Source: Gadus chalcogrammus
Lineage: Eukaryota; Chordata; Actinopteri; Gadiformes; Gadidae
Assembly (NCBI RefSeq): GCF_026213295.1
Contig: NC_079416.1
Location: 1,012,083 to 1,076,082, forward strand
DNA length: 64,000 nucleotides
Direction: 5' to 3'
Shown: positions 4,505-54,424 of the stretch, one piece after another
Numbering within the stretch: position 1 is the first letter of the stretch
How the letters are laid out: every line of letters begins with the position of its first letter
Translations under genes and position numbers: made by a program
The notes under the pieces: model-generated
Seen by the model: the letters and a program-made list of their open reading frames with translations, nothing else
Told to the model about the DNA's origin: nothing
Database searches by the model: none

Positions 4505-6735
4505 GCCGAGCCGATATCCCTATCTATCCTGGCCCCCCTGAAAACCCGCTCAGTCTCATTCACCCACACTGCTCCCTGGTTCACTCCTCATCTGCGCCAG
4601 CTCAAAGCCACTGGTCGTCGACTGGAGCGACTCTACAATAAGACTCAACTCACTGTACACCGCCAAATGTATTCGGACCACCTCCATCACTACAAGAATG
4701 CCCTCACCACTGCCAAAACCTCATACTACTCCAACCTCATCAACACTGGTACAGGCAACAGCAGAGTCCTCTTCTCAACAGTCAGCCACTTACTTCAGCC
4801 TCCTAAATCCCTCCCTCCAGACATTTCCACCACCCAATGCACTGCGTTCCTGGACTTCTTCAGCTCTAAAATCAACACCATTCACCAACAACTGGCCTCA
4901 TCTCGCACCCCCTCTGATGACCCACCCTGGATGATCACCTCTGGCCAACCTCTCATCAGCTCCCTCTCTGACTTCACCCCAGTAACAGAACAGACCGTTT
5001 CAGAACTCATCCGCAAAGCCAAAACCACCACCTGTCAGCTCGATCCTCTTCCCACCTCCCTTGTCAAAGCATGTCTTCCGTCCATCTCCCCCATGATCAC
5101 CAACATAATTAACTCCTCCCTCACTACTGGTACTGTACCCCCCACTCTCAAGCTGGCTGCCATCACTCCCATCCTGAAAAAACCTGGTGCTGACCCAACT
5201 GACCTTAACCATTACCGGCCCATCTCCAATCTCCCTTTCATCTCCAAAACACTTGAAAGGGTGGTTGCCGCACAACTACAGTCCCACCTCGACAAAAAAA
5301 CAATCTCCACGAACCGTTCCAATCTGGCTTCCGTCCAAAACACAGCACTGAAACAGCCCTAGTCAAAATCACCAACGACCTCCTCCTTGCAGCCGACTCT
5401 GGATTACTCACCATTCTCATCCTCCTCGATCTCAGCGCAGCATTCAACACCATCTCCCACCCTCTGCTCCTGGACCGCCTGGCTGGCATTGGGATCACTG
5501 GTGCTGCACTCTCCTGGTTTACATCCTACCTCACCGGCCGTCAACAATTTGTTCAACTAAGCAACCACAAGTCTGGGTGTTCAGGTGTCTCACTGGGTGT
5601 CCCCCAGGGGTCAGTCTTGGGTCCACTCCTGTTCACCACTTACCTCCTCCCGCTGGGCACACTCCTCCGTCACCATGGGGTCCATTTTAACTGCTACGCT
5701 GACGACACACAGGTCTACATCTCCACCAAACCCACCGCTGCCATCCCCCCCACCTCCCTCATCACGTGCCTGGAAGAGATCCGGAGCTGGTTGAGCAGGA
5801 ACTTCCTGAAACTCAATGGAAACAAGACCGAGGCCCTGCTCATCGGATCCAAATCCACCCTCACTAAATCACAACACACCCCAGCTCCACTCATAATCAT
5901 CGATGGATTCCCAGTACCCTTCTCCTCCAAAGTCAAGAGCCTCGGCGTCATCCTGGACAACACCCTCTCATTCGCACCCCATATTCACAACATCACCCGG
6001 ACTGCATTCTTCCACCTCCGCAACATCGCCAGACTCCGCCCATCACTGACCCAATCCAGCACTGAAATCCTAGTTCACTCATTTGTCACATCACGCATAG
6101 ACTACTGCAACGCCCTCCTCACCGGACTCCCCACCAAACTCATCAACAGACTGCAGATCATTCAGAACTCGGATCATCACCCGCACCAAATCATCTGACC
6201 ACATCACCCCTGTCCTCATCCAACTTCACTGGCTCCCAGTACACTACTGCATCCAATACAAAACCCTACTCCTCACCTACAAAACTCTCCACAACCTAGC
6301 CCCCAGTTACCTCTGCGACCTCCTCCAAGAATACACTCCCTCGCTCTCCCTCCGCTCAACCTCTGCTGGACTACCATGTATCCCCACATCACGACTCACT
6401 ACAATGGGTGCCCGGTCATTCAGCTGTTCAGCACCCAGGCTCTGGAACTCCCTCCCCCCACACATAAAACAGTCAGACACCATTACAACCTTCAAGTCAC
6501 AACTCAAAACTCACCTGTTCAAACTCGCACACAACGTCTAACTGATCACTGTTTTGATTGTTTGTTTGTTTTGTTTTGTCTTGTTTTTGTTTTAATTATT
6601 TTTTGTTTATTATGTTTATTCATTTATTTTTTCCACAATGTCTTGTTTTTTTAAACGATTTATGATGACTAAATGCTCTGTAAGGTGACCTTGGGTGTCT
6701 TGAAAGGCGCCTCTAAATTAAATGTATTATTATTA
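4505..6735 (+). mobile_element. 5'-truncated L2-clade LINE with (ATT)n tail
   Basis: The body encodes the linker and reverse transcriptase of a CR1/L2-clade non-LTR retrotransposon. It ends with the fish L2 type 3' end (CTTGAAAGGCGCCTCTAAAT followed by ATTATTATTA). The endonuclease half is absent, as expected for 5' truncation during target-primed reverse transcription. The target site duplication could not be defined. Confidence 0.85.
4520..6540 (+). pseudogene. L2 ORF2 reverse transcriptase remnant
   Basis: Conserved RT blocks run in order: [20 protein letters not shown] in the frame of 4667-5362, then GFRPKHSTETAL, ILLDLSAAF, GVPQGSVLGPLLF and the catalytic CYADDTQ near 5692-5712. The blocks sit in more than one frame, with a shift near 5335-5345. 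A small deletion after IIQNS near 6170 loses the frame again. The C-terminal blocks (LHWLPV, RLWNSLPPHI) are still recognisable to about 6540. The copy is therefore dead. The blocks place it with the L2 clade rather than RTE, which has FADD and a different C-terminus. Confidence 0.85.
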
Positions 6736-7309
6736 GATACTGCATGTAATGGCTGTGCGGTATTCCCAATGTTGAAGCACGATGCTTCATTTAAAGACAA
6801 CGTGGCCAGCACTGGTCAAACGTCGGCCGCCTCGCTGGCCGACCCTACGACCGGGCCAAAAGAAACATTAACTCAGACGACCACATCACTCAAGGAAACA
6901 AACCTACAGGTACAACAGAGGAGCTTTGAACCTTTATGAGGACATATGGGATCACATTCCAAATCAGCACGCTTGAGCCTCCGTTTGTTCAGAGGCGTGC
7001 AGAACCCCTAGTGCTCGTTTGACACCAAACGCAAGTTTTACCCACTGGGGGACCATAGGCAGGCTAGGGGAACTCATTAATGTTAGAAAACCTTGAAGTG
7101 AGATTTTCATGCCATGGGACCTTTGACATTGTGTTGATTCTTGGACTCTGATACCTCAGATTCAGAAATTGTGATCACATCCAGGAGCAGTTCAATTAAA
7201 TGGGGCTGACACTGTGGTATGTTCATTTTTTTACTTTTTTTTTTTTTTTGGGGCTTTTTTGATTTATTTATTTCTTGATTAAGTCATTGGATATCTATTT
7301 GAGCATTTA
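6736..7309 (+). other. Unassigned stretch with one possible decayed exon
   Basis: Bases about 6745-6920 are open, compositionally coding-like, and end at a CAG/GTACAA donor-like site. Because HECT-domain exons follow at 11-12.2 kb on the same strand, this may be an upstream low-complexity exon of that gene; this is only an inference. The remainder, including a poly-T tract near 7236-7260, shows nothing recognisable. Confidence 0.3.
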
Positions 7310-7321
7310 AGCATTAAATTC

Positions 7322-10300
7322 CTCTCCTGGAACAGTCACCTTATCGTGGTGGAGAGGTTTGCGTGTCCCTGTGAACCTGAGGGCTGTGTTGTCTGGAGCC
7401 TTGTGCTCCTGGTAGGGTCTCTCATGGCAGAGTGGTCTCAGGTGAGGGGCCAGACTAAGAATGGTTCAAAAATCCTCAATGAATAACGTAAGAAGAGGAG
7501 ATGTGACCCGGCCCGGAGGAAGCCCGGGGCCCCCGTCTGGAGCCAGGCCCAGACGGAGGGCTCGATGGCGAGCGCCTGGTGGCCGGGTTTGCCACGGAGC
7601 CCGGTCGGGCACAGCCCGAACAAACTACGTGGCACCCCCCCTCTCTTCATCCCATGGGCCCACCACCTGTGGGAAGACCCGTTGGGGTCGGGTGCGCAGC
7701 CACATGGGCGGCAGCGAAGGTCAGGAGTCTCGACGAACCAGACCGTGGCGGCAGAAGCTGGCTCTGGGGACGTGGAACGTCACCTCGCTGTGGGGAAAGG
7801 AACCGGAGCTTGTGAGGGAGGTGGAGCGCTATCAGTTAGATCTGGTGGGGCTTACCTCCACGCACAGTCTCAGCTCTGGTACCGTACTCCTGGATAAGGG
7901 TTGGACTCTATTCTTCTCCGGAGTTGCCGAGGGCGTGAGGCGCCGGGCAGGTGTGGGGATACTCATAAATCTCCGGCTGAGCGCCGCGGTGTTGGAGTTT
8001 ACCCCGGTAGACGAGAGGGTCGCCTCCCTGCGCCTAAGGGTTGTAGGGGGGAAAACTCTGACTGTTGTTTGTGCGCATGCACCAAACAGCAGCTCAGAGT
8101 ACTCGGCCTTCTTGGAGACCCTGAATGGAGTCCTGTATGGGGCTCCAGTAGGGGACTCCGTAGTTCTGCTGGGTGACTTCAACGCCCACGTGGGCAACAA
8201 TGGAGACACCTGGAGAGGCGTGGTGGGGAGGAACAGCCTCCCTGATCTAAACCCGAGCGGTCGTTTGTTATTGGACTTCTGTGCTAGTCATGGATTATCC
8301 ATAACAAACACCATGTTCGAACATAAGGGTGCTCATAAGTGTACCTGGTACCAGAGTACCCTAGGCCGAAGATCAATGATCGATTTTGTGATTGTGTCAT
8401 CTGATCTGAGGCCGCATGTTTTGGACACTCGGGTAAAGAGAGGGGCGGAACTGTCAACCGACCACCATCTGGTTGTGAGTTGGATCAGGGAATGCGGGAA
8501 ATTTCCGGATAGACCTGGTAAGCCCAAACGAGTAGTGCGGGTGAACTGGGAACGTCTGGAGGAGGCCCCCGTCCTAGGTATCTTCAACTCACACCTCCGG
8601 CAGAGTTTTTCTGGCATTCCTGTGGAGGTTTGGGGCATTGAGCCGGAGTGGGCGGTGTTCAAAGCCTCCATTGCTGAAGCTGCGGTGGCTAGCTGTGGCC
8701 TCAGGGTCTTAGGCTCCTCAAGGGGCGGTAACCCTCGGACACCGTGGTGGACACCGGTGGTCAGGGAAGCCGTCCGATTGAAGAAGGAGGCCTTCCGGGA
8801 TATGATATCCTGGAGGACTCCTGACTCGGTTGCAGGGCACCGACAGGCCCGAAGGGCTGCAGCTGCTGCCGTGTCGGAGGCTAAGCAGCGGGTGTGGGAG
8901 AAGTTCGGAGAGTACATGGAGAAGGACTTTCAGTCTGCACCAAAGTGTTTCTGGAAGACTATCCGGCACCTCAGGAGGGGGAAACGGGGAACCATCCAAG
9001 CTGTGTACAGTAAGGATGGGACTCTGTTGACCTCAACTGAGGAGGTCGTCGGACGTTGGAAGGAACACTTTGAGGAACTCCTGAATCCGAATAACACGCC
9101 CTCTATGTTGGAGGCAGAGCTCGAGGTTGATGGTGTTTCGTCGTCAATTTCCCTGGTGGAGGTCACTGAGGTAGTCAAACATCTCCGCAGTGGCAAAGCC
9201 CCAGGGATTGATGAGATCCAGCCAGAAATGCTAAAGGCTCTGGGTGTTGAGGGGCTGTCATGGTTGACACGCCTATTCAACATCGCGTGGGAGTCGGGTA
9301 CAGTGCCAAAGGAGTGGCAAACCGGGGTGGTGGTTCCCCTGTTCAAAAAGGGGGACCAGAGAGTGTGTGCCAATTACCGGGGTATCACACTTCTCAGCCT
9401 CCCTGGTAAAGTCTACTCCAAGGTGCTGGAAAGGAGGGTTCGGCCGATCGTCGAACCTCCGATTGAAGAGGAACAATGCGGTTTTCGCCCCGGACGTGGA
9501 ACTACGGACCAGCTCTTCACTCTCGCAAGGATCCTGGAGGGGGCCTGGGAGTATGCCCATCCGGTCTACATGTGTTTTGTGGATCTGGAGAAGGCGTATG
9601 ACCGGGTCCCCCGGGAGAAACTGTGGGAGGTGCTGCGGGAGTATGGGGTAAGGGGGTCTATCCTCAGGGCCATCCAATCCCTGTACTCCCAAAGCGAGAG
9701 CTGTGTTCGCGTCCTCGGCAGCCAGTCAGTTTCGTTCTCAGTGGGTGCTGGTCTCCGCCAGGGCTGCGCCTTGTCACCAATCCTGTTTGTGATATACATG
9801 GACAGGATATCGAGGCGTAGTCGTGGTGGGGAGGGGTTGCAGTTCGGTGGTCTGAGGATCTCGTCACTGCTTTTTGCAGATGATGTGGTCCTCATTGGAT
9901 CATCGGCCTGTGACCTTCAGCACTCACTGGATCGGCTGGCGGCCGAGTGTGAAGCGGCTGGGATGAGGATCAGCACCGCTAAATCTGAGGCCATGACTCT
10001 TAGCAGGAAACCGATGGATTGCTTACTCCGGGTAGGAAATGAGTCCTTAGCCCAAGTGAAGGAGTTCAAGTACCTCGGGGTCTTGTTCGCGAGTGAGGGT
10101 ACTATGGAGCGTGAGATTGGCCGGAGAATCGGAGCAGCGGGGGCGGTATTGCGTTTGCTTTACCGCACCGTTGTAACGAAAAGAGAGCTGAGCCGCAAGG
10201 CAAAGCTCTCGATCTACCGGTCGATCTTCGTTCCTATCCTCACCTATGGTCATGAGGGCTGGGTGATGACCGAACGGACGAGATCGCGGGTACAAGCGGC

Positions 10301-15756: not shown

Positions 15757-16524
15757 AATACACACTTTTCGAAATACACCACTCTAAATTTCACACAACT
15801 CATAACGACACACATCAGACAGCAGACACTGCATCCAACCCGGTATCACGCGATTGCGTGCTCCTGCGCACGAATGTTAATCTATTGAAGCGTGTTCCCG
15901 AGCACGATAGTCCGACTTTTTGCGTGTTACACAAAACGAAATGTAAACCAATGCATTCTGAATGGGAGTGTTCTAAGACAATTAACGTGCTCCACAAAAC
16001 GCTACGAGAGAGAGAGAAAGAGAGAGCGGGAGGGACAGAGAGAGAGAGAGAGAGCGAGAGAGAGGCTTCAGAAAGGGTGTGCGCAGATAGTACAGTGCAC
16101 CCTAGTTATGTTTATGCCAAAACCTACATAATTAGGCTGTGGAAATTGCAATAAGTTAAGAACACAACTTCGCACGTTGAGCACACAGCCGTGTGACTCG
16201 TTTATTTTGTAAAAAAGAAAACCGGAAAACAAAGCGTGCTGAAGGTAAACAAATCCAGCATGGTCTGTGACGTCATGAGACGCACGTAATCCTTAGGGAC
16301 CGCGATCCCTGAACCACCAAGAACGTAAATGACATGCAGTAAACAACAACACAATTGAAAGAACAACACATAACGAAATACTGTAGGTGAATTATGTCAC
16401 GGTCACTACAAGGCTATAATTATATTATTTAGCGTGTAATGAGACAATCTATAGCCAAATTGTCGAAGATGCCCGAGAATCTTCAGGGATATCAGCATGG
16501 GAAATCGGCGAATCAGACCCATGA

Positions 16525-16626
16525 AGGGGGGGGGGGGGGGGGGACACGTTAGTTGAAGGGGGGGGGGGGGGGGGGGACGGACACGTTTGTTGAGGGGGGG
16601 GGAGACACGTTTGTAGAGGGGGGGCA
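16525..16626 (+). repeat. G-tract minisatellite, quadruplex-capable
   Basis: Four G runs of roughly 8 to 20 bases are separated by GACACGTTWGTTGA-type spacers; the mirror C-rich version lies at about 19809-19910. Such runs can form G-quadruplexes. Confidence 0.85.
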
Positions 16627-16925
16627 TGCTCGACAACGAGAGTTGGTTTTTATTGAACGCTCGACAACGAGAGTTGGTTTTTATTGAACGAGACTTCAAC
16701 ACGGAACAGCTGCACGAAACGATGGTCACGTCATTCTCGGTGACGCTGTCGACAATAATGAACACACGAACAATGTTAATAGAACAACACACAACCACAT
16801 AACATCCCGAACCCATTAACCCCACTTAATCCTAACAACAAAACAAGTTAACAAAAGCCCCATTTGTCAACTGAGAACCCCAATTCCCAGAATCCCCCGC
16901 GGCTCCGGAACACGGCGTAGCTTAT

Positions 16926-17335
16926 ATTAATCTTTATTATCTGAATGGGAAATGCAATATTTTAGGACAGATACACCATTAAACGCGTTTCTAATGACAT
17001 TTCTAGCGAGAAATTTACATTTTCCTTACATAATCTTCAGTCAGTGAATGTGTATGATCTTTATTAATCTTTATTATCTGAATGGGAAATGCAATATTTT
17101 AGGACAGATACACCATTAAACGCGTTTCTAATGACTTTTCTAGCGAGAAATGTACATTTTCCTTACATAATCTTCAGTCAGTGAATGTGTATGATCTTTA
17201 TTAATCTTTATTATCTGAATGGGAAATGCAATATTTTAGGACCGATTCACCGTTAAACGTGTTTCTAATAACATTTCTAGCGAGAAATATACTTTTTACT
17301 TGCATAATCTTCAGTCAGTGATTGTGTCTGATCTT
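16926..17335 (+). repeat. 137-bp tandem repeat, three copies
   Basis: The word CTGAATGGGAAATGC recurs at 16941, 17078 and 17215, a period of exactly 137 bp. The third copy is more diverged. The mirror array occupies about 19100-19510. Confidence 0.9.
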
Positions 17336-18326
17336 TAGTTTTATAGTTATTAGAATTTGATCGGCTCGCTCGCATGTTTCAACGACGTCAGGTTGCTTTC
17401 GCTAAACTAGCAGCTCACGTGCTTCCTGCGTTTGTGTTATTAAACTGTTACTTTATGTAACTTTTAATGATATCATCTTGTTAGAAACACGTATATCTGA
17501 GAGCCAACCCAGTCGCCAAAAGCATACGTTGACAGTGTACTTTTCGTGAACACTGGATTACGTCGCATTTCAACATAAAATAGCGTGTTATACACACACA
17601 CACACGCACAGACACACGCACACAAGCACACACACGCACGCACAGACACACAGACACAGACACACACACACACACACACACACACACCCACACACGCACA
17701 AGGTGCATTTCGCTGCTAAAACAACAACAAAAAAATATTCCCTCAAATATTATTACTTTCAAAACGTTGGCCAAAATGGCCAATAATATCATTTTTTATT
17801 TGGGATGCTTCTAGGACATTTTGGGTGGATTTTGAACGGTATGTGGGGGGCACGTTTTTTGCAGGACCTGGCAACCCTGCGCTCTTGCCCGAGATCTGGA
17901 TCCACCCCGGCGTGGTGCCGTCTCCTTTTGACCTTTTGACCCCAGACTTCTGGGGGAATAGCTGAATCAATTCATTAGTCAATCAGAAGCATGTGAATAT
18001 CTTCCCGGTGGCGTAAGAGGACGAACAAGGTGTCCTTCAACATCTACGCTTCCAGGAGATTGCAACGGTGCCACACATGAGCATATTCGAACATGTTTAA
18101 TGGTAGTAATTAGCTGTCGAAATTGGAGGCCTTAATCAATACTGAGCAGCTATTGATTTGCTTCCCGATAAAGATTTGTCACAAATGACATGTTATTTAG
18201 CATCTACACGTTGAGCTGAGTCCAATGACACCAAGAACGACACTCTAGCTAATGGTAACATGTGTTTTACATGGTACACCTAGGTCTAGGACATGATCTC
18301 GGTGTAGCAAGAGGCCGAGCTTGATC

Positions 18327-20371
18327 TCATTGGACTCAGCTTAACGTGTAGATGCTAATTAACATGTAATTTGTCAAAAATCTCATCGGGAAGCAAATCT
18401 ATAGCTGGTCATTATTGATAAAGGCCTCCAAAATCGACAGCTAATTACTACCCCGAAACATATTCAAATATGATCATGTGTGGCACTGTTGCAATCGTCT
18501 CGAAACGTAGATGTCAAAGGACACCTTGTTTGCTCTGTTGCACCACCGGGAAGATATTTTCATACTTCTAATGGATTGATTCATATTTTAAGGTTCTCGG
18601 AGTGAGACTTTAAGTGGCTGCAGCAGAAGTGTTGAGACGAAAGATGATATCAAGAGATTTATAGAATATTCCCATTCACATTATGATTCTTCGTCGTAAC
18701 ATCCGACCAAACATCCTTTACATTCACAGAGCGAAGATTATGATAGTCCAGGCTCAGCAAGTGCTCCATCTCGTTGAGAAAAAAAGTTTTCCCAAACGCA
18801 CACACGCACGCCTGTGCGTGTGCGTGCGTGTGTGTGTGTGTGTATAACACGCTATTTTATGTTGAAATGCGACGTAATCCAGTGTTCACGAAAAGTACAC
18901 TGTCAACGTATGCTTTTGGCGACTGGGTTGGCTCTCAGATATACGTGTTTCTAACAAGATGATATCATTAAAAGTTACATAAAGTAACAGTTTAATAACA
19001 CAAACGCAGGAAGCACGTGAGCTGCTAGTTTAGCGAAAGCAACCTGACGTCGTTGAAACATGCGAGCGAGCCGATCAAATCCTAATAACTATCAAACTAA
19101 AGATCAGACACAATCACTGACTGAAGATTATGCAAGTAAAAAGTATATTTCTCGCTAGAAATGTTATTAGAAACACGTTTAACGGTGAATCGGTCCTAAA
19201 ATATTGCATTTCCCATTCAGATAATAAAGATTTATAAAGATCATACACATTCACTGACTGAAGATTATGTAAGGAAAATGTACATTTCTCGCTAGAAAAG
19301 TCATTAGAAACGCGTTTAATGGTGTATCTGTCCTAAAATATTGCATTTCCCATTCAGATAATAAAGATTAATAAAGATCATACACATTCACTGACTGAAG
19401 ATTATGTAAGGAAAATGTACATTTCTCGCTAGAAATGTCATTAGAAACGCGTTTAATGGTGTATCTGTCCTAAAATATTGCATTTCCCATTCAGATAATA
19501 AAGATTAATATAAGCTACGCCGTGTTCCGGAGCCGCGGGGGATTCTGGGAATTGGGGTTCTCAGTTGACAAATGGGGCTTTTGTTAACTTGTTTTGTTGT
19601 TAGGATTAAGTGGGGTTAATGGGTTCGGGATGTTATGTGGTTGTGTGTTGTTCTATTAACATTGTTCGTGTGTTCATTATTGTCGACACCGTCACCGAGA
19701 GTGACGTGACCATCGTTTCGTGCAGCTGTTCCGTGTTGAAGTCTCGTTCAATAAAAACCAACTCTCGTTGTCGAGCGTTCAATAAAAACCAACTCTCGTT
19801 GTCGAGCGTGCCCCCCCCCCTACAAACGTGTCTCCCCCCCCCTCAACAAACGTGTCCCCCCCCCCCCCCCCCCCTTCAACTAACTTGTCCCCCCCCCCCC
19901 CCCCCCTTCATGGGTCTGATTCGCCGATTTCCCATGCTGATATCCCCGAAGATTCTCGGGCATCTTCGACAATTTGGCTATAGATTGTCTCATTACACGC
20001 TAAATAATATAATTATAGCCTTGTAGTGACCGTAACATAATTCACCTACAGTATTTTGTTATGTGTTTTTCTTTCAATTGTGTTGTTGTTTACTGCATGT
20101 CATTTACGTTCTTGGTGGTTCAGGGATCGCGGTCCCTAAGGATTACGTGCGTCTCATGACGTCACAGACCATGCTGGATTTGTTTACCTTCAGCACGCTT
20201 TGTTTTCCGGTTTTCTTTTTTACAAAATAAACGAGTCACACGGCTGTGTGCTCAACGTGCGAAGTTGTGTTCTTAACTTATTGCAATTTCCACAGCCTAA
20301 TTATATATATAGGTTTTGGCATAAACATAACTAGGGTGCACTGTACTATCTGCGCACACCCTTTCTGAAGC

Positions 20372-20416
<45 letters not shown>

Positions 20417-20614
20417 CCTCCCGCTCTCTCTTTCTCTCTCTCTCGTAGTGTTTTGTGGAGCACGTTAATTGTCTTAGAACACTCCCAATCAGAATGCATT
20501 GGTTTACATTTCGTTTTGTGTAACACGCAAAAAGTCGGACTATCGTGCTCGGGAACACGCTTCAATAGATTAACGTTTGTGCGCAGGAGCACGCAATCGC
20601 GTGATACCGGGTTG
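18327..20614 (-). repeat. Right arm of giant palindrome
   Basis: Carries the same ordered blocks as the left arm in reverse complement: CA/GT tract (18798-18842), three 137-bp repeats (about 19100-19510), C-run minisatellite (about 19809-19910) and TC tract (20372-20446). A few substitutions and repeat-length differences separate it from the left arm. Confidence 0.85.
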
Positions 20615-21325
20615 CTGCATCACACACACTTCAACATTGTCTGTGTGAAAAAGAGTTTCCTTGACGCACATGGTTGTTGTTAAAAAGCATATTTTTACTT
20701 AAAACACATAGCACAACCGTCGACTCACTTGCTCAACTCAAGCCTCCCTCCAGTCTAAAACTCTGGCCCTCTTAGGCCCCGTTTACACGAAGGGAAAACG
20801 CAGATATTTCCACGCGGTTTAGCCTCTCATTTACACGAAAACGCTGTTTTTATCACAGAAAACGATCATTTCTAAAAACTCCGGCCGAAGTGGAGATTTC
20901 TGAAAACGCTGGTTATGTGTTTCCGTGTCAACGGGGAGAAACGTGGTTTTAGGTTCTGAAGCGTCACATTATGCGCCAGGAAATGCTTAATGTCATATGA
21001 GCGCCCTATGTTTACAGTTTGTTTGTTACAGGAAGACCCTCGTGTTATTCGTTGTTGTTGATTCTGAGGATTGAGGGGAAAAACGGTCTGTCTAGCTACT
21101 GGACCAGATGAAATGAGACGGAGAGGTAATAAAGTCTGTCGGCACGAGGACCTTGGATTTATTAAGTAAAGTGGCAACGGTTATACAGAGTCATAAAGCG
21201 TGAGAAATCGAATATGTCTAAGTCCCTAATCAGCGCTGATGGTTCGTCCAGAGCTTCGCCTCCGTGGAAGGTCTGCTTCAGAAGAAGGTGAAGAGTCCCT
21301 GTGTGATACCGTCTTATGCTGTATC

Positions 21326-31424: not shown

Positions 31425-33387
31425 GGCCCCGTTTCCCGAAAGCGTCGTTAGCTTCAGTGGATCGTGAAGAGCGTCGAAAGGGCATCGTAGAGTTTTCACT
31501 GCGTTTCCCGAAAGCATCGTTGGTAACGAACGTCGTGAAAACGCTCGGAACTAACGAGTACTCCAGGGGTACTCGTGGGTACTTGTAGGACGCTAAGAGC
31601 ATCGTTAGCTATAGCCTCAGTGGCGACACCATCGGACATTCCGTGTATTGGATGCGTTTTATTACATTTTATTGTTTTATTGTTTAGTGACATGGGGAGG
31701 GGGGTTAAAGCTGCGATCACTCTTCGGCGTGATTCCAAACCAAATTCCAAAGAATGGATCTTTCTCGTCCTCGTCCGGTTCACCCAACGCCACCCCAGCC
31801 TTGGCTGCAATGTTGTGCAACATTGCTGTCACGCAGATCACAGCGCACGACTTGGCTGGCGCAAACTGGAGCCCTCCGCCGGACTTGTGGAGGCATCGGA
31901 AGCGCAACTTCCACCTGCCGATCGTGCGCTCGACAATGCACCGGGCCAGACGGTGGGCTTCGTTGTACTGTTCCTCGTGGACGTCGCCCGGGTTAGCCAC
32001 TGGGGTGAACAGGTGAGGCCTAAGCGGATAGCCACTGTCTCCGAGGAGCCGCCACTCTCCCCTGGAGGCTGCAGCCAGCCGTCCGATGGAGGACTCGCGG
32101 AACACGAAGGAGTCGTGAGTGCTTCCAGGCCATCTCGCTACGACATCCAGGATGATGCCCTGATGGTCGCACACCACCTGGCAGTTGACAGCGGCATATC
32201 CCTTCCGACAGATGTAGACGTGGCCATCAACGTGGGGCGTGAGAATTGGAATCAAAGTTCCATCCACGACTCCGGCCACTTGTGGGATGCGGAACGACCG
32301 AAAAAAGTTCTCTTGGGTCGCACCCATCTCGTCTCTGCTGTGGAAACGGACGTGTCGCGGTACGAGACGAAGGAGGCTGTATGTCACTGCCTGGAACGAT
32401 CTGCACACTGACGCCTTGCACAGGCCCTGGCCATCTCCTGCCACCTGCAGGAAGCTCCCTGTGGCGTAGAATCGGAGGGCGGCCAAGAGCTGCAATTGCG
32501 GTGTGAGCGCAAAGCTCCTCCTTGTAGCTCGTCTGAGGTCTTGCCTGATCGCCCCAAGCAGCTGTCTGATGGCCTCCCTGGGCAGCCTGTAGCGCTGTAT
32601 GACTGCCGCGTCAGTGTAGACCTCGAGGGGGTCAAAGTTGTCCCGGATTCGGCCATTGATCGAAACAAGGCGACTCCGGGGACGCCTCGGCCTCTCTCTC
32701 TCGCTCGCTCGCTCTCGCACGCGCGCGTGCGTGCACGGAGCGCTAGCACACGCTGTCTCCCAGCCATTATTTGCACTGACGTACTGCATTGTCCCTTGCA
32801 CTATATATGCCTATGTTCAGAGACTAATTAATCAAACCTGTCAACGATTGTTAATTTGATGCGTCATGCCTACAACACTACACTATCAACACATGATTAA
32901 CAATCAATCAGACACTCGGTAATGTTAAACAGCTAATTTGTTAAGGGTAGGCCTATATCAAACATCATTGCCTATTTTAATTTTTTTGTCATATGGAATT
33001 ATTTCAGGGGGGAAAATGCCATGAAACGCACAGTGCATTCAGGATTAGGACTGATATGTCGGCTTAAGCCTAATCAATTGTGATTTAATGTCTTTAGCAT
33101 TCATATAATTGCAGTCTATTTTTTTCGTAGGCTACTCTGCTGTTATATTTTAACCCTTTTTAACACAATTTTCCTGCGACATTCCTGCGTCTCCCCCTCC
33201 TACGGAGCCCATTTCAGCACCGTGTCAGTAGACAGTTACAATCCTACGACGTCGGGAGTGCAGTGAATGCGCGTTCACGTTAGGAGGAGTTTCGGGAAAC
33301 GCGACAAAGAAATTATCGATGATTCGAAAGATCCATCGGGAGAATGATCTTACGAGCGAAGATCCATCGTTATCGGGAAACGGGGCC
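31425..33387 (-). mobile_element. PIF/Harbinger transposon, CTG target duplication
   Basis: Termini GGCCCCGTTTCCCGAAAGCG (left) and the reverse complement of the right end GGCCCCGTTTCCCGATAACG are flanked by the direct repeat CTG (31422-31424 and 33388-33390). The 3-bp target size is that of the superfamily. The element is 1963 bp with one ORF; the Myb/SANT-like partner gene of autonomous Harbingers is not present. Confidence 0.9.
31677..32801 (-). CDS. HARBI1-like PIF/Harbinger transposase, 374 aa, intact
   Basis: A full-length DDE transposase of the HARBI1 family. Residues about 60-150 are helical with a putative helix-turn-helix. The catalytic region contains VAGVVDGTLIPI (D180), WPGSTHDSFVF (D230), LLGDSGYPL (D255) and CIVERTIGRWKLRFRCL (E291), followed by MLHNIAAKAG. 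The first Asp, the Asp in GDSGY and the Glu in VERTIG form the expected triad. Length matches the family (about 350 aa). The N-terminal 40 residues (Arg/Glu rich, from a CTCGCTCG repeat) may be spurious; a later start is possible. It would excise and integrate Harbinger elements in the nucleus, normally with a Myb-like partner that is missing here. Confidence 0.9.
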   Translation of the reverse strand: MQGTMQYVSANNGWETACASAPCTHARVRERASERERPRRPRSRLVSINGRIRDNFDPLEVYTDAAVIQRYRLPREAIRQLLGAIRQDLRRATRRSFALTPQLQLLAALRFYATGSFLQVAGDGQGLCKASVCRSFQAVTYSLLRLVPRHVRFHSRDEMGATQENFFRSFRIPQVAGVVDGTLIPILTPHVDGHVYICRKGYAAVNCQVVCDHQGIILDVVARWPGSTHDSFVFRESSIGRLAAASRGEWRLLGDSGYPLRPHLFTPVANPGDVHEEQYNEAHRLARCIVERTIGRWKLRFRCLHKSGGGLQFAPAKSCAVICVTAMLHNIAAKAGVALGEPDEDEKDPFFGIWFGITPKSDRSFNPPPHVTKQ

Positions 33388-33972: not shown

Positions 33973-36106
33973 ATGGCTGACTCAAGTGAAGGAAGCGATA
34001 TTGACGAAGTCATCAATTCGGATCTTAATGAAATTAGGCAGGATGATTTTAATGAATTAAATGATATCCCAGATGATGTAGATGTACCAGCCGATCGCGT
34101 AGTTAGAGAGCAGTGGATCCAAGCGATGTTTCGAGAGGAAGAGGGGGAAATGCGCGAGTTCGTTGGCTTCCAAGAAGAATGGAAAACAAACAACTTCCAC
34201 TCACGTGAGAAGATCCCGTATAATCGCAAACCAGGTGCCAAGATAGAAATTCCAGATGTTGTTACACCAATACAGGTATTCTCCCGTATTTTCACGGAAG
34301 AGTTGTGGATGCGACTTGTAACGGAAACAAATCTGTATGCGGATCAAACACGGAGCGCAACTCCATCAAACAGCAAGTGGGTACCCGTCACAGTTAAAGA
34401 AATGAAGACCTTCGTAGGACTGTGTCTTGCCATGGGCATCCTAAGACTGCCATCACGTAGAGATTTCTGGCGTCAGAAAAAGTGGCTTTTTCGAACGACC
34501 ATCCCCCAAGCCATTTCAAGAGACAGATTCGACATCATCTGGAGGTAGGCTCGTAAATTGATATCAATGACAAGAATATTTTTTTTTATACTGATTGTGG
34601 AGATGACTAGCCAACTAGCTTTTTGTAATGATGATGGGAATGTCACATGATATGATTGCAACGATGATTGCAACGGTAATAATGATTTGTTGCTGATACT
34701 AATGCCAATAAATAAATGTCTAAAGGTGATGATTGATAATTGATGATTATGGATAGCAACAATAAAAATGTAATATAATGCAATAGACAATGCTAGCTTA
34801 TGATGGATGACATTAATAATTATGTCTGATGATAGATAATAATACATAAAACATACATAAATACAAATGAAAATAATACCTCATGATGGATGACCGTAAT
34901 AATTATGATGTTTGAACTGATAAAGTGTAATTATACAAACACATGACAATGAAAGCTCATGATGATAATAATGTGTAATTCACTGTCCTACTTGCTATGT
35001 GTATTTTCAGGTATCTCCACTTGCAAGACAACAAAAGCAATGATGTGAAGCAGTCCGACAAGCTTTGGAAAGTCAGATGGTACCTCGACTACCTGAAAGA
35101 TCGATTCCAGGAATTGTATGAGGTGGATGGGTTCGTGAGTGTCGACGAAAGCATGGTGAAATTCAAGGGGAGACTCGCTTTCCGACAATATCTTCCTCTG
35201 AAACCTACCAAGTGGGGCATCAAGGTGTGGGTGATGGCTGAGAGCTCCACTGGGTATGTTTCAAACTTCCAAGTCTACACCGGACGTGAGGGAGGGAGTA
35301 GTGAAAAGGGCCTTGCACACCGCATAGTAATGGATCTGGCTGGACCATACTTCGGGTCCCAACTCTCCATTTTTATGGATAACTTTTACTCTGGGGTGCC
35401 GCTTTTTGAAGAGTTGAAGGCTCATGGTCTGAATGCGTGTGGCACTGTTCGATCCAACAGAAAGGGAATCCCCCCAAAACCGCCTGCCATGGAGAAGCAT
35501 CGGTACCAAGTGTATCAGAAGGATGACCTGACCTTCTGTGCTTGGCAGGACACAAAGGTTGTTTTGGTCCTGTCAAACTACCATGAGCCCATGGCAGAAG
35601 GGTCTGTCAGGAGAAGACGGGGAGAAGACATCCAGAGAGAGGTCAGAGTGCCAGCGTGCGTCTCTGATTATCAGAAGCACATGAAGGGGGTCGATCTACT
35701 GGATCAGATGGTAAGCTACTATCAGTTCCAGCACCGGTCCAAGAAATGGTGGCGGAGGCTTTTTTTCTTTTTCCTATCAGTCAGCTGCTACAATTATTTT
35801 ATTGCTGCAAGGAGTGCTGGAGCCTACAAGGGTTGCTACAAAGAGTGGCAGGAGGACCTTGCACAGGAACTTGTCACCCCTGTGACAGCAAAGAGTGCTC
35901 CTCAGTGCGCTGCAGCACCTGTGACAGCCTCAGCCGAGCACGACTGTGAAAAGATCTTTGAGAAGAGGAAGATCTGCAGGGAATGTTCACTGTCTAAGAG
36001 TGGCACTGAGGCCCGTCCTGGTGCAACAGTGTATGGCTGCAGACAGTGCAATGTGCCACTGCACATTGAGTGCTTTGGAAAGCATTGCCGCAGCACTCGA
36101 AAGTAA
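33973..36106 (+). CDS. piggyBac transposase with one intron, 555 aa after splicing
   Basis: Exon 1 (33973-34544) ends TGGAG before GTAGGC; exon 2 (35011-36106) begins after GTATTTTCAG and restores the frame across Arg191. The joined protein is 555 aa without stops. The N-terminus is acidic. The catalytic Asp triad is present: VSVDESMVKFKGR (D236), IFMDNFYSG (D314) and KGVDLLDQM (D419). The C-terminus is a cysteine-rich zinc module, CRECSLSKSG, GCRQCNVPLHIECFGKHC, used for terminal repeat binding. Without splicing the protein would stop at a TAG directly after codon 191. It cuts and pastes DNA at TTAA in the nucleus. An alternative reading as a domesticated PGBD gene is unlikely because terminal repeats and TTAA duplications are still present. 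Confidence 0.92.
34545..35010 (+). other. Intron of the piggyBac transposase gene
   Basis: 466 bp, rich in GATGAT and AT words, GT donor and pyrimidine-rich AG acceptor, phase 2. Confidence 0.85.
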
Positions 36107-51518: not shown

Positions 51519-52062
51519 TGTTGGCTTGGACCCCTAAAGAAAAACGTTTTTTTTTTTTATCAAATAAAATTTGCGCGGGACATATACGCGCGGTAGCGCA
51601 TGCGCTGTCAACAGCAGTTGAAAGCCGTCAACAGTAGTTACGCACTCCTAAACGTTGGCATGGCGGAGGGGAAACGAGCTAAGACCAGCGACGGCGCTAC
51701 ACCGGGGCTAAGGGGTGCTATAGCCCCGGCAAAAAAATGTAGCCCCAGTTAAGCCCCTCTAGCATTTTAGCACTGTTTTGCAAATGTCGAGGATTTTGAG
51801 AAATGTACCAAAGCGACTGAGAAAAACTGTAAAGGTTCATATGTATGCATTCTGTTCCAAATCCACGCTTGCGTGTTTGTACTGCGCCCGTACCCCGTTT
51901 ACCCTATGCTGCGCCTGCGTGTGTGTGAGAGAGAGAGGGGACAAGAGGGGGGGGGCGGGGGGAGTCTTTTGTTTATATCACCTATTTGTTTATATACTCG
52001 CGCGTTAAATAAAGGTTAATAAGGTTAGCTGCAAATGGATGTTTAAATAAGGCTAGCTGAAA
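51519..52062. other. Upstream part of the hAT element
   Basis: About 51690-51770 contains repeated GGGGCTA / TAGCCCC words that can fold (CCGGGGCTAAGGGGTGCTAT against ATAGCCCCGG). The true terminus is not resolved and may lie in the gap. Confidence 0.4.
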
Positions 52063-54424
52063 ATGAATCGTTGGTTGATCAAGAAAAGAGTGCAGGTAGA
52101 AAATGAAGAACCAATGAATGAAGTCTCCCAGACGGCCAACGAAGAAGAGGGAGATTCGAAAAATGAATCTGAGAGAGGAACTCCTGAGCCAGGACCAGAA
52201 GGAGCACCAGGGCAGTCCATCGCTGCTATCAGCTCTACATCCCCCGTTAGCTGCACTGCTGACACAGACACCAGCCCCTCTGATTTAAGCCAGTCACCTG
52301 CTAATGAACCGAGACGGCCTCTTCTTCAGCGTTATCCGGCCACCAAAGTTGGACAGCAGGATCGCTATTTTAATCGTAGATGGTATGAGGATTACAAATG
52401 GCTTGAATATTCCATTTCAAAGGACCGTGTTTTCTGCTTTGCATGCCGCCACTTTCAACGTCCAGGAAATCATGGCGAGAAGGCAGCATTTACCCACAAC
52501 GGCTACCAGAACTGGAAGAAGGCGACAAGTTCTTTCAAGACACACAATGTTAGTGTGGAGCATAAATATGCTATGGCAGTGTGGAATGAGTGGACTATTC
52601 AGAAAGAGTCTGGCTCAACAATTTGCAATGCTCTGAGTGATGGACATGCAAAAATAGTAAACGAGAACAGAGAGTATATGAGAGCAGTTGTGGAGTCATT
52701 GCTTTTCACCGCATACCAGGGACTTTCACAGAGAGGAGACACAGAGAATGACACGGCTGTCAACCAGGGAAACTTTCTTGAACTTTTACAGATGATAGGC
52801 AAATTTGACAAAACAGTTGCACAGAAAATATCTGACAATCCAAGAAATGCGAAGTCACACATCATGACATACAGAACGAAATACTGGACATTATGGCAAA
52901 TATGATAAGGGATCAGATAAGTAGTGAAGTACAAGATGCTGAAATGTTTGCTTTGATGGTAGATGAGAGTAAAGACCTGAGTAAAACGGAACAAGTGTCT
53001 GTTGTGTTGCGCTACGTGAAAAATGATAAAGCTGTGGAAGAATTTCTCCATTTCACGCCAGCTGACGGTTTGGATGCAGAGTCACTTTTCGCTACAATCA
53101 AAGACACTCTGAGCAAATGTAACATTGATCACACTGCCTGTATTGCTCAGTGTTATGATGGCGCTGCAGTGATGTCCGGTGTTCACAACGGGGTCCAAGA
53201 GAAATTCCGAGAAGAGGTCCCTCAGGCAATCTACATCCATTGCCATGCACACCGCCTCAATCTAGTTTTGGTGGACTGTGTGAGAAACGTGAAGCCAGCG
53301 GGGGATTTTTTTGTTATTGTGCAAGACATGTACAAGTTTTTCTCAGGCTCATTTGTCCATGTCCATTTCGTTAAGAAGCAACGGGAACTTGAGCCCTCTC
53401 AGCAGCCCATTGAACTCAAGAAACTGTCCGATACGCGCTGGTCCTGCCAGTATCACTCGCTATGGGCAGTGCAAAAAACCCTACCCGCCATCATTGCATC
53501 GTTAAATGACATTAAGGCGCAACCAAATCCACGCAGATCCACTGATGCTCGGTCATTACTCGCACTCATTGATGCTGAATTCATCCTCCACCTTGTTCTG
53601 TTTGAGGATCTTTTTCGTACAGCAAAGTTCATGTCTGACACTCTACAGTCCCCCGAACTTTTGCTGGAGACTGCCACCGACCTCGGGCACTCAGTCATCA
53701 CGGGCCTAAAAGAAAAGCGCACAGAGGACTCTTGGAGAGCCATATGGAGCAAGGCAGAGGCGCTCTGCACCAAAGTCGGTGTCGCAAAACCACCGCAACT
53801 CCCACAACAGAAGAGGCAATCTCAACAACCTCACCATCTGCAGGACTATGTAGTTGAAGCTCCAGTTCAAACAGAGCATCCATGCATGTCCTCTCTGGAT
53901 AAACTCCGAACATCCTCATTCTACCCTGTCATTGACCGACTAGTGAATTAAATGACACGACGGTTTTCAACAGAAGCAGGTGCCGTTCTCATGGGCACGT
54001 CAGCCCTCAACCCCGAAAATGCCACATTCCTTGAAAAGGAGAGCCTTGAGCCCATGGCGCAGTTGTATGGGATCAAAAAGGATGACCTGCTGGCCGAGGT
54101 GCACCAGATGCGCCGGCTCTTGGAAAGAAAAAAAGAACAAGGTGAAACACTCAGCAGCACACTGGAATTTCTGTCCATGCTTAAACCTTACAAAGACTCC
54201 TTTGAGGACATCTATAAACTTTTGCGAATTGCTGTTACACTGCCTGTAACCTCCGCTTCATGCGGCGCGTAAAAACCTACTTGAGGAACAGAATGGCAAA
54301 CCCTCGACTCAGCAACCTTGCCTGCCTGTCCATACACGCAGAAAGAACCAAGGCCCTGGATGTCCAGAAAATTATAGACTCATTTGCACTCAACCACAGC
54401 AATAGACGCATCGTCCTTCTGTGA
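52063..54424 (+). pseudogene. hAT-superfamily (ZMYM/TTF-type) transposase, dead
   Basis: The first ORF (52063-52905) has an acidic N-terminus and a TTF-type zinc finger region around DRYFNRRWYEDYKWLEYS and CFACRHFQ. The second (52893-53951, other frame) has the RNase-H-like core: FALMVDESKDLS (first Asp), CIAQCYDGAAVMSG (second Asp), HCHAHRLNLVLVD and LSDTRWSCQ. A TAA at 53949-53951 interrupts it, the same frame continuing at 53952. Near 54255 a deletion removes the conserved CERxFS block with the catalytic Glu, leaving LPVTSASC followed by a stop. The remaining C-terminus (54260-54424) matches the hAT dimerisation region in another frame. At least three inactivating lesions are present. Confidence 0.88.

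What the first reader, a model, noticed from the sequence alone, without database searches (positions are those of the whole stretch)
15836..20614. A 4.8-kb near-perfect palindrome with a 7-bp direct repeat at its borders
The two arms (2394 and 2288 bp) are mirror images down to abrupt, identical ends starting CAACCCGGTATCACGCG. CTGCATC directly follows each outer end in direct orientation (15829-15835, 20615-20621), the signature of insertion with target duplication. Chance agreement of 7 bases at exact borders is about 1 in 16,000. No transposase is encoded. A foldback element with arms this long and a 7-bp target does not match a fish element I can name, so it may be an undescribed non-autonomous element.
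Basis: partly seen in the sequence, partly recalled or inferred. Interest (0 to 1): 0.88.

Follow-up and report, generated by a model that had tools for sequence, protein, structure and literature searches.

The report
High-copy giant-palindrome DNA transposon family
The 4.8-kb palindrome is a real, shortened copy of a recently active mobile DNA family in this genome whose full-size copies are about 7-kb palindromes; insertion typically duplicates 7 bases of the target, and the enzyme that moves it was not found.

Summary
At 15836-20614 two outer arms (1,787 and 1,802 bp, 97.5% identical, inverted) end abruptly in CAACCCGGTATCACGCG and are flanked by the direct repeat CTGCATC. The middle is not a continuation of the arms: it is left-arm sequence with its own 600-bp hairpin. 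Against full copies (7,023 and 7,033 bp, 99% covered by inverted self-matches) the window copy lacks about 2.4 kb.

The genome has 483 matches to the 31-bp end with at most one mismatch (0 for the reversed control). On contigs C1-C12, 51 neighbouring pairs of listed ends face inward within 20 kb; no outward-facing neighbours do. Of 21 distinct sites readable at both ends, 18 have a perfect 7-bp duplication. One copy sits inside a related copy, and uninterrupted versions of that site exist.

So it is a non-autonomous foldback-type transposon family, not an artefact. Its superfamily is unproven. Galileo (P superfamily, 7-bp duplications, long repetitive inverted repeats) is closest in form. The genome has P-type genes, but none of 26 domain matches on C1-C12 lies near a listed end, and one apparent sequence link traced to an LTR-like repeat.

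The parts
15829..15835 (+). left 7-bp target-site duplication CTGCATC
15836..17622 (+). left outer arm (long terminal inverted repeat), begins CAACCCGGTATCACGCG
   Evidence: self-comparison, 97.5% to right arm
17623..18776 (+). inner part of the left arm only, no counterpart kept in the right arm of this copy; element positions 1-2941 match L021 1-2949 in one alignment, 97.8%
17979..18575 (.). older ~600-bp palindromic module, 80.7% self-complementary, present in each arm of copies L021, L022 and L009
18777..18811 (.). junction of an internal deletion of about 2.4 kb relative to L021 (L021 2950-5381 missing)
18812..20614 (-). right outer arm (inverted copy of left outer arm)
20615..20621 (+). 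right 7-bp target-site duplication CTGCATC
16006..16064 (+). GA microsatellite in left arm (mirror at 20372-20444)
16628..16690 (+). two tandem 31-bp units in left arm (mirror at 19745-19809)
16925..17337 (+). three tandem 137-bp units in left arm (mirror at 19098-19510)
19506..19830 (+). LTR-like segment in the right arm (mirror about 16606-16929); part of it resembles a repeat found elsewhere in the genome
   Evidence: inferred

Best explanation
A non-autonomous, foldback-type DNA transposon family. Full-length copies are about 7 kb and almost wholly palindromic (arms about 3.4 kb plus a central hairpin), without a transposase. A DDE-type transposase supplied from elsewhere recognises the conserved terminal sequence CAACCCGGTATCACGCG..., excises the element and inserts it into a cut with a 7-base stagger, whose repair gives the 7-bp duplications. 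Internal deletions and arm-to-arm exchange then diversify copies; the window copy is one such deletion product. Shown: the family, its ends, the duplications, the pairing of ends, a nested insertion with uninterrupted counterparts, high similarity of the copies read. Inferred: the cut-and-paste chemistry, the trans-acting transposase, and that the source belongs to the P superfamily (Galileo-like; about 0.4). The confidence below is for the family and its transposition, not for the P assignment.
For: 483 ends with at most 1 mismatch over 31 bp against 0 for the reversed control. Among 182 listed ends on C1-C12, 51 inward-facing neighbouring pairs within 20 kb and 0 outward-facing ones, median span 6.3 kb, many at 7.0-7.4 kb. 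Perfect 7-bp duplication at 18 of 21 distinct two-ended sites, different target sequences, no match of any other length from 4 to 12 at those sites. A 5,843-bp copy lies inside another family member; with it and one TATATGT removed, the joined flanks align through the junction with 11 arm ends of 7 other elements, two of which are duplicates of one insertion. L021 and L022 are 99% covered by inverted self-matches. In 9 elements the outer 620 bp differ on average by 1.2% between copies and 0.8% between arms of one copy; 0 of 5,000 random pairings were as close (L011, L020, L015 and L022 left out). With L011 and L020 kept (11 elements), arms of one copy average 97.4% identity against 94.1-94.7% between copies. 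No Pfam domain over its cut-off in 6 reading frames of the palindrome.
Against: Three of 21 two-ended sites lack the duplication: C2:7466074 and C135:5306 have unrelated flanks; at C103 the flanks are inverted copies of each other. No transposase-bearing copy with these ends was found. Joined flanks of all 18 sites were compared with the letters held, and only the nested one gave a clear uninterrupted site; it lies in a TA-rich tract of varying length. The window's own empty site could not be searched. L011's two arms are only 84.9% alike. The copies read in full came from the best-scoring hits, so the apparent youth is biased. Reads were not available.
Confidence: 0.92

Rival explanations
1. 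The family is moved by a transposase of the P superfamily, i.e. it is a counterpart of Galileo in this genome.
For: Galileo makes 7-bp duplications, has long internally repetitive inverted repeats and many transposase-less copies (passages of PMC2775673, PMC3573991, PMC4168063). This genome has 55 matches to the P-type RNase H domain PF21787, including a set of 12 closely similar gene copies. Ends start with CA, as does zebrafish Pdre2 quoted in PMC10983969.
Against: The 7 copies of that set on C4, C6 and C13 have no exact or position-17-variant family end within 10 kb; 0 of 26 PF21787 matches on C1-C12 do. Ends of other sequence variants were not listed. Pdre2 makes 8-bp duplications and its end differs. 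The Galileo target motif is not seen. The one sequence link between P genes and the arms is an LTR-like repeat.
Confidence: 0.4
2. The source transposase belongs to another or an undescribed superfamily that makes 7-bp duplications.
For: No partner found among P or MULE (0 of 7 matches near a listed end). Duplication length alone is a weak classifier.
Against: Dada (6-7 bp) lacks terminal inverted repeats, stated in PMC3706591 in its Dada-U6 section; hAT, MULE and others make other lengths (recalled). hAT, KDZ and other families were not searched for near the ends (PF18758 unanswered).
Confidence: 0.5
3. Assembly artefact: a read folded back on itself.
For: Contig C103 (158,602 bases; L015) shows a palindrome running through the element's ends into the flank at 99%, as such an artefact would.
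Against: In the window the flanks differ and carry the 7-bp duplication, the arms differ by 2.5% with indels, one side lacks 2.4 kb, and hundreds of ends exist at different loci.
Confidence: 0.02
4. A host inverted duplication not caused by transposition.
For: Repeated or inverted flank next to an element end occurs at C15:8068400/8070201, C16:2436629/2440345, C3:3141922/3145129 and C103.
Against: Same ends at hundreds of places, 7-bp duplications at 18 of 21 sites, nested insertion with uninterrupted counterparts.
Confidence: 0.02

Closest known systems
Galileo (P superfamily, Drosophila)
   Same: 7-bp duplications; long, internally repetitive inverted repeats with tandem units; transposase-less and chimeric copies; the longest D. 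willistoni copy is 9,021 bp with 4,246/4,680-bp arms and no gene (passages)
   Different: Target preference differs (Galileo GTANTAC; here only a weak CT[G/C]...[G/C]AG tendency in 18 sites); here 7-kb palindromes look like the full-length form rather than an exception; no transposase-bearing copy seen. The end sequences were not compared, as Galileo's was not in the passages seen
Drosophila Foldback (FB), Tetris and other foldback elements
   Same: Long repetitive inverted arms with little between them
   Different: Known here from recall and a search listing only; not compared by sequence
Zebrafish P element Pdre2
   Same: CA end, cut-and-paste (passages of PMC10983969)
   Different: 13-bp inverted repeats, 8-bp duplications, different end sequence
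Dada (fish)
   Same: 6-7 bp duplications
   Different: no terminal inverted repeats (stated in the Dada-U6 section), inserts in small RNA genes; no tRNA or Rfam match in the window

Membership tests
Foldback-type non-autonomous DNA transposon | long inverted arms making up most of the element, multi-copy, target duplications | tested here: met
   of 13 elements read, 8 have 85% or more covered by inverted self-matches, 4 have 37-79%, and L015 (100%) is set aside
Foldback-type non-autonomous DNA transposon | no transposase in the copy | tested here: met
   Window copy: no Pfam domain over cut-off in 6 frames. In the other 12 elements the only frames of 150 aa or more that touch an element run from the flank into an outer arm (L011, L012, L013, L020), not searched in Pfam
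P superfamily / Galileo | 7-bp (Galileo) target duplications | tested here: met
   18 of 21 sites
P superfamily / Galileo | shares ends with a copy encoding a P-type transposase | tested here: inconclusive
   0 of 26 PF21787 matches on C1-C12 within 10 kb of a listed end; only two classes of end listed; P copies' own ends not read
P superfamily / Galileo | palindromic target motif GTANTAC | tested here: not met
   18 sites, weak preference only
P superfamily (zebrafish Pdre2) | 8-bp duplications and end CATACCTGTCAAC | tested here: not met
Dada | no terminal inverted repeat, insertion in small RNA genes | tested here: not met
   (RNA genes looked for in the window only)
MULE/Mutator | MULE transposase linked to the ends; 8-10 bp duplications (recalled) | tested here: not met
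   0 of 7 MULE-domain matches within 10 kb of a listed end; duplications are 7 bp
hAT | 8-bp duplications (recalled) | tested here: not met
   no 8-bp match at any of the 18 sites; hAT genes near ends were not searched for

The most novel reading that the evidence does not exclude
A so far undescribed vertebrate transposon lineage (Galileo-like P or a new transposase group) whose normal mobile form is a complete 7-kb palindrome, kept palindromic by arm-to-arm exchange and amplified to hundreds of copies very recently despite the usual instability of such palindromes.
Probability: 0.4. Interest if true: 0.72.

Novelty: new variant of a known kind. Interest (0 to 1): 0.6.

Why it matters
Long perfect palindromes are expected to be unstable and to break chromosomes (general knowledge). 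A genome with hundreds of ends of such a family, and multi-kilobase palindromic copies about 1% apart among those read, is a natural test of how they survive and what rearrangements they cause; repeated or inverted flanks already show beside element ends at four places. If the source is P-type and the host a fish, it would extend the Galileo form to vertebrates.

Tried and rejected
P link through sequence: the region just after the stop codon of a P gene copy matched the arms (85% over 53 bp, 53.6 bits against at most 27.4 in 200 shuffles). Genome-wide, that stretch (40 scored of 245 candidates) hits the 12 P copies and 28 other places; among these, eight pairs lie in the same orientation 1.49-1.58 kb apart, and the second members start at query base 5, which is TGTGGCG. 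I read this as an LTR-like repeat and rejected the link; no LTR element was read out to prove it. The P copy at C17:17335493 has a family end 5.8 kb further on; for 12 P copies I estimated by hand that such a coincidence has a chance of about 0.02, and it did not recur at the 7 copies on C4, C6 and C13.

Dada: rejected, no inverted repeats. MULE: none near listed ends. L019 middle: the insert is flanked by an 8-bp repeat CCCTAGAA, so a later insertion of another element, not the family's gene (no Pfam match for its 265-aa frame). Three stretches of the end sequence occur in no relevant paper (one hit, a crop AP2/ERF paper by its title), and a 23-bp exact end not in viral contigs. Literature searches for fish foldback or palindromic elements: none; five listed, none on this by title or abstract start except the Dada paper; one review on satellite DNA, seen as a listing; none. 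Subscription papers and repeat databases were not searchable. L015 (C103) was read but treated as an inverted duplication or assembly product and kept out of the arm comparisons.

Full report
Observation. Self-comparison of the window confirms inverted arms 15836-17622 and 18813-20614 (97.5%, 22 mismatches, 4 gap openings) with abrupt ends, and CTGCATC directly outside both. The arms hold mirrored GA tracts, G/C runs, two 31-bp units and three 137-bp units. Between the arms lies 17623-18812, in which 17979-18575 is palindromic with itself at 80.7%. No tRNA or Rfam family in the window and no protein domain over its cut-off in six frames of the palindrome tested (one sub-threshold Atrophin-1 match, E 0.024).

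Other copies. The window's genome is held as G000 (630 Mb, 168 contigs). The outer 125 bp gave 40 scored matches of 918 candidates, 98-100% identical. The outer 31 bp with at most one mismatch occurs 245 + 238 times, against 0 + 0 for the reversed control. Exact ends number 104 + 52; a further pattern with another base at position 17, over 25 bp, gives 99 + 101. I had 252 of these 356 places listed (100 of 104, 52 of 52, 100 of 200), complete for C1-C12. There, 182 ends give 51 neighbouring inward-facing pairs under 20 kb and no outward-facing ones; spans run from 432 bp to 17.8 kb, median 6.3 kb. Neighbours in the same orientation also occur.

Anatomy of the family. Thirteen two-ended elements were read in full, the window included. 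L021 and L022 (7,023 and 7,033 bp, same flanks, so duplicates of one insertion) are 99% covered by inverted self-matches: arms about 3.4 kb, a 600-bp hairpin module in each, and a 290-bp hairpin in the centre. L009 and L013 are at 96% and 95%. The remaining eight, the window among them, have 37-93% (L015, 100%, is treated apart). The window copy matches L021 1-2949 and then resumes at L021 5382: it lacks about 2.4 kb holding the inner right arm. Its central palindrome is thus the left arm's module. A further 1,438-bp two-ended copy keeps only short outer parts of the arms.

Target duplications. Sixty-five ends could be read with flanks, 32 left and 33 right. Of 32 left ends, 6 had no right end within 25 kb in the fetched letters; right ends without a left end were not counted. 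I merged four duplicate pairs of left ends (C1:20538756/20666917, C15:8068400/8070201, C16:2436629/2440345, C16:29185646/29294301) and dropped C1:3178173, whose own right end is unknown. That leaves 21 distinct sites, of which 18 have a perfect 7-bp direct repeat and none a repeat of another length from 4 to 12. Exceptions: C2:7466074 and C135:5306 (unrelated flanks), C103:145371 (flanks are inverted copies). Around the 18 duplications there is only a weak symmetric preference: T just outside, C or G next to it, and G or C at the first base.

Empty site. The 5,843-bp copy at C1:3178467-3184309 lies inside another family member. Its flanks, joined with one TATATGT, align through the junction with 11 arm ends belonging to 7 other elements, two of them duplicates. 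The site is TA-rich and varies in TA number, so this shows clean insertion but does not by itself fix the 7 bp. For the other 17 sites no clear uninterrupted counterpart was among the letters held.

Age and arm exchange. In nine elements (L011 and L020 left out as a divergent group, L015 as inverted-duplicated, L022 as a duplicate) the outer 620 bp differ by 1.2% between copies and 0.8% between the two arms of a copy; 0 of 5,000 random pairings were as close. In 3 of the 9 (L009, L013, L021) the two arms are each other's nearest neighbours or tied; in the window they are not. With L011 and L020 included, arms of one copy average 97.4% identity, arms of different copies 94.1-94.7%, and L011's own arms only 84.9%. 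This fits recent spread plus some arm-to-arm exchange and some mixing between subfamilies. These copies were picked by a best-match search, so older ones are under-represented.

Search for the enzyme. P-type domains: PF21787 55, PF21788 49 and PF21789 32 matches, including a set of 12 closely similar gene copies (the 1-kb 3' pieces of two read are 99.6% identical) whose C-terminal piece scores as THAP9_C. Of the 26 PF21787 matches on C1-C12 none is within 10 kb of a listed end; of all 55, one is (C17, 5.8 kb), the listing being incomplete after C12. A short match between arm and P gene flank proved to be a repeat that also lies elsewhere and looks like an LTR. MULE: 7 matches, none near. Other transposase families were not searched for successfully.

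Verdict. A real, high-copy foldback-type DNA transposon family with 7-bp duplications and recent activity, of which the window holds a deleted copy. Form and duplication length match Galileo best; passages of PMC4168063 describe one 9,021-bp Galileo copy with 4.2/4.7-kb arms. P membership is not shown and Galileo's target motif is not seen, so I file it as a new variant of foldback elements and keep P as a 0.4 hypothesis. Papers were seen as passages (PMC2775673, PMC3573991, PMC4168063, PMC3706591, PMC10983969) and, for PMC8869645, as the first of five parts of the text.

Noticed in passing
L048/L049 (C3:3141922, 3145129, 3146149), L025 (C15:8068400, 8070201), L023 (C16:2436629, 2440345), L015 (C103): Flank repeated in tandem or inverted beside family ends (12 flank bases compared at the first three, long stretch at C103), suggesting that the palindromes provoke local rearrangements.
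   Followed up: partly
G000 C4, C6, C13, C15, C16, C17, C20, C74: A P-type transposase gene in 12 closely similar copies, with an LTR-like repeat just after the stop codon in the two read and at a similar distance from the RNase H match in the others.
   Followed up: partly
G000 C9:19030078-19060196: Four P-type reading frames of 870-890 aa without stops in a 30-kb stretch.
   Followed up: no
window 31680-32810 (-) and 34979-36103 (+): Transposase frames matching DDE_Tnp_4 (Harbinger-like, recalled) and DDE_Tnp_1_7 (piggyBac-like, recalled).
   Followed up: no
window 52057-52902 (+): Frame with weak zf-C17orf113 and DUF4371 matches just under the Pfam cut-offs, perhaps a hAT-type transposase (name recalled).
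   Followed up: no
G000 C17:11550186-11553480, C6:23986850-23997312, C7:24111138: Family copies or ends that hold, or lie within 4 kb of, the LTR-like repeat found beside the P genes (4 of its 28 non-P places).
   Followed up: partly
L019 about 5645-7418: Another element inserted in the central hairpin of a family copy, with an 8-bp duplication CCCTAGAA.
   Followed up: partly
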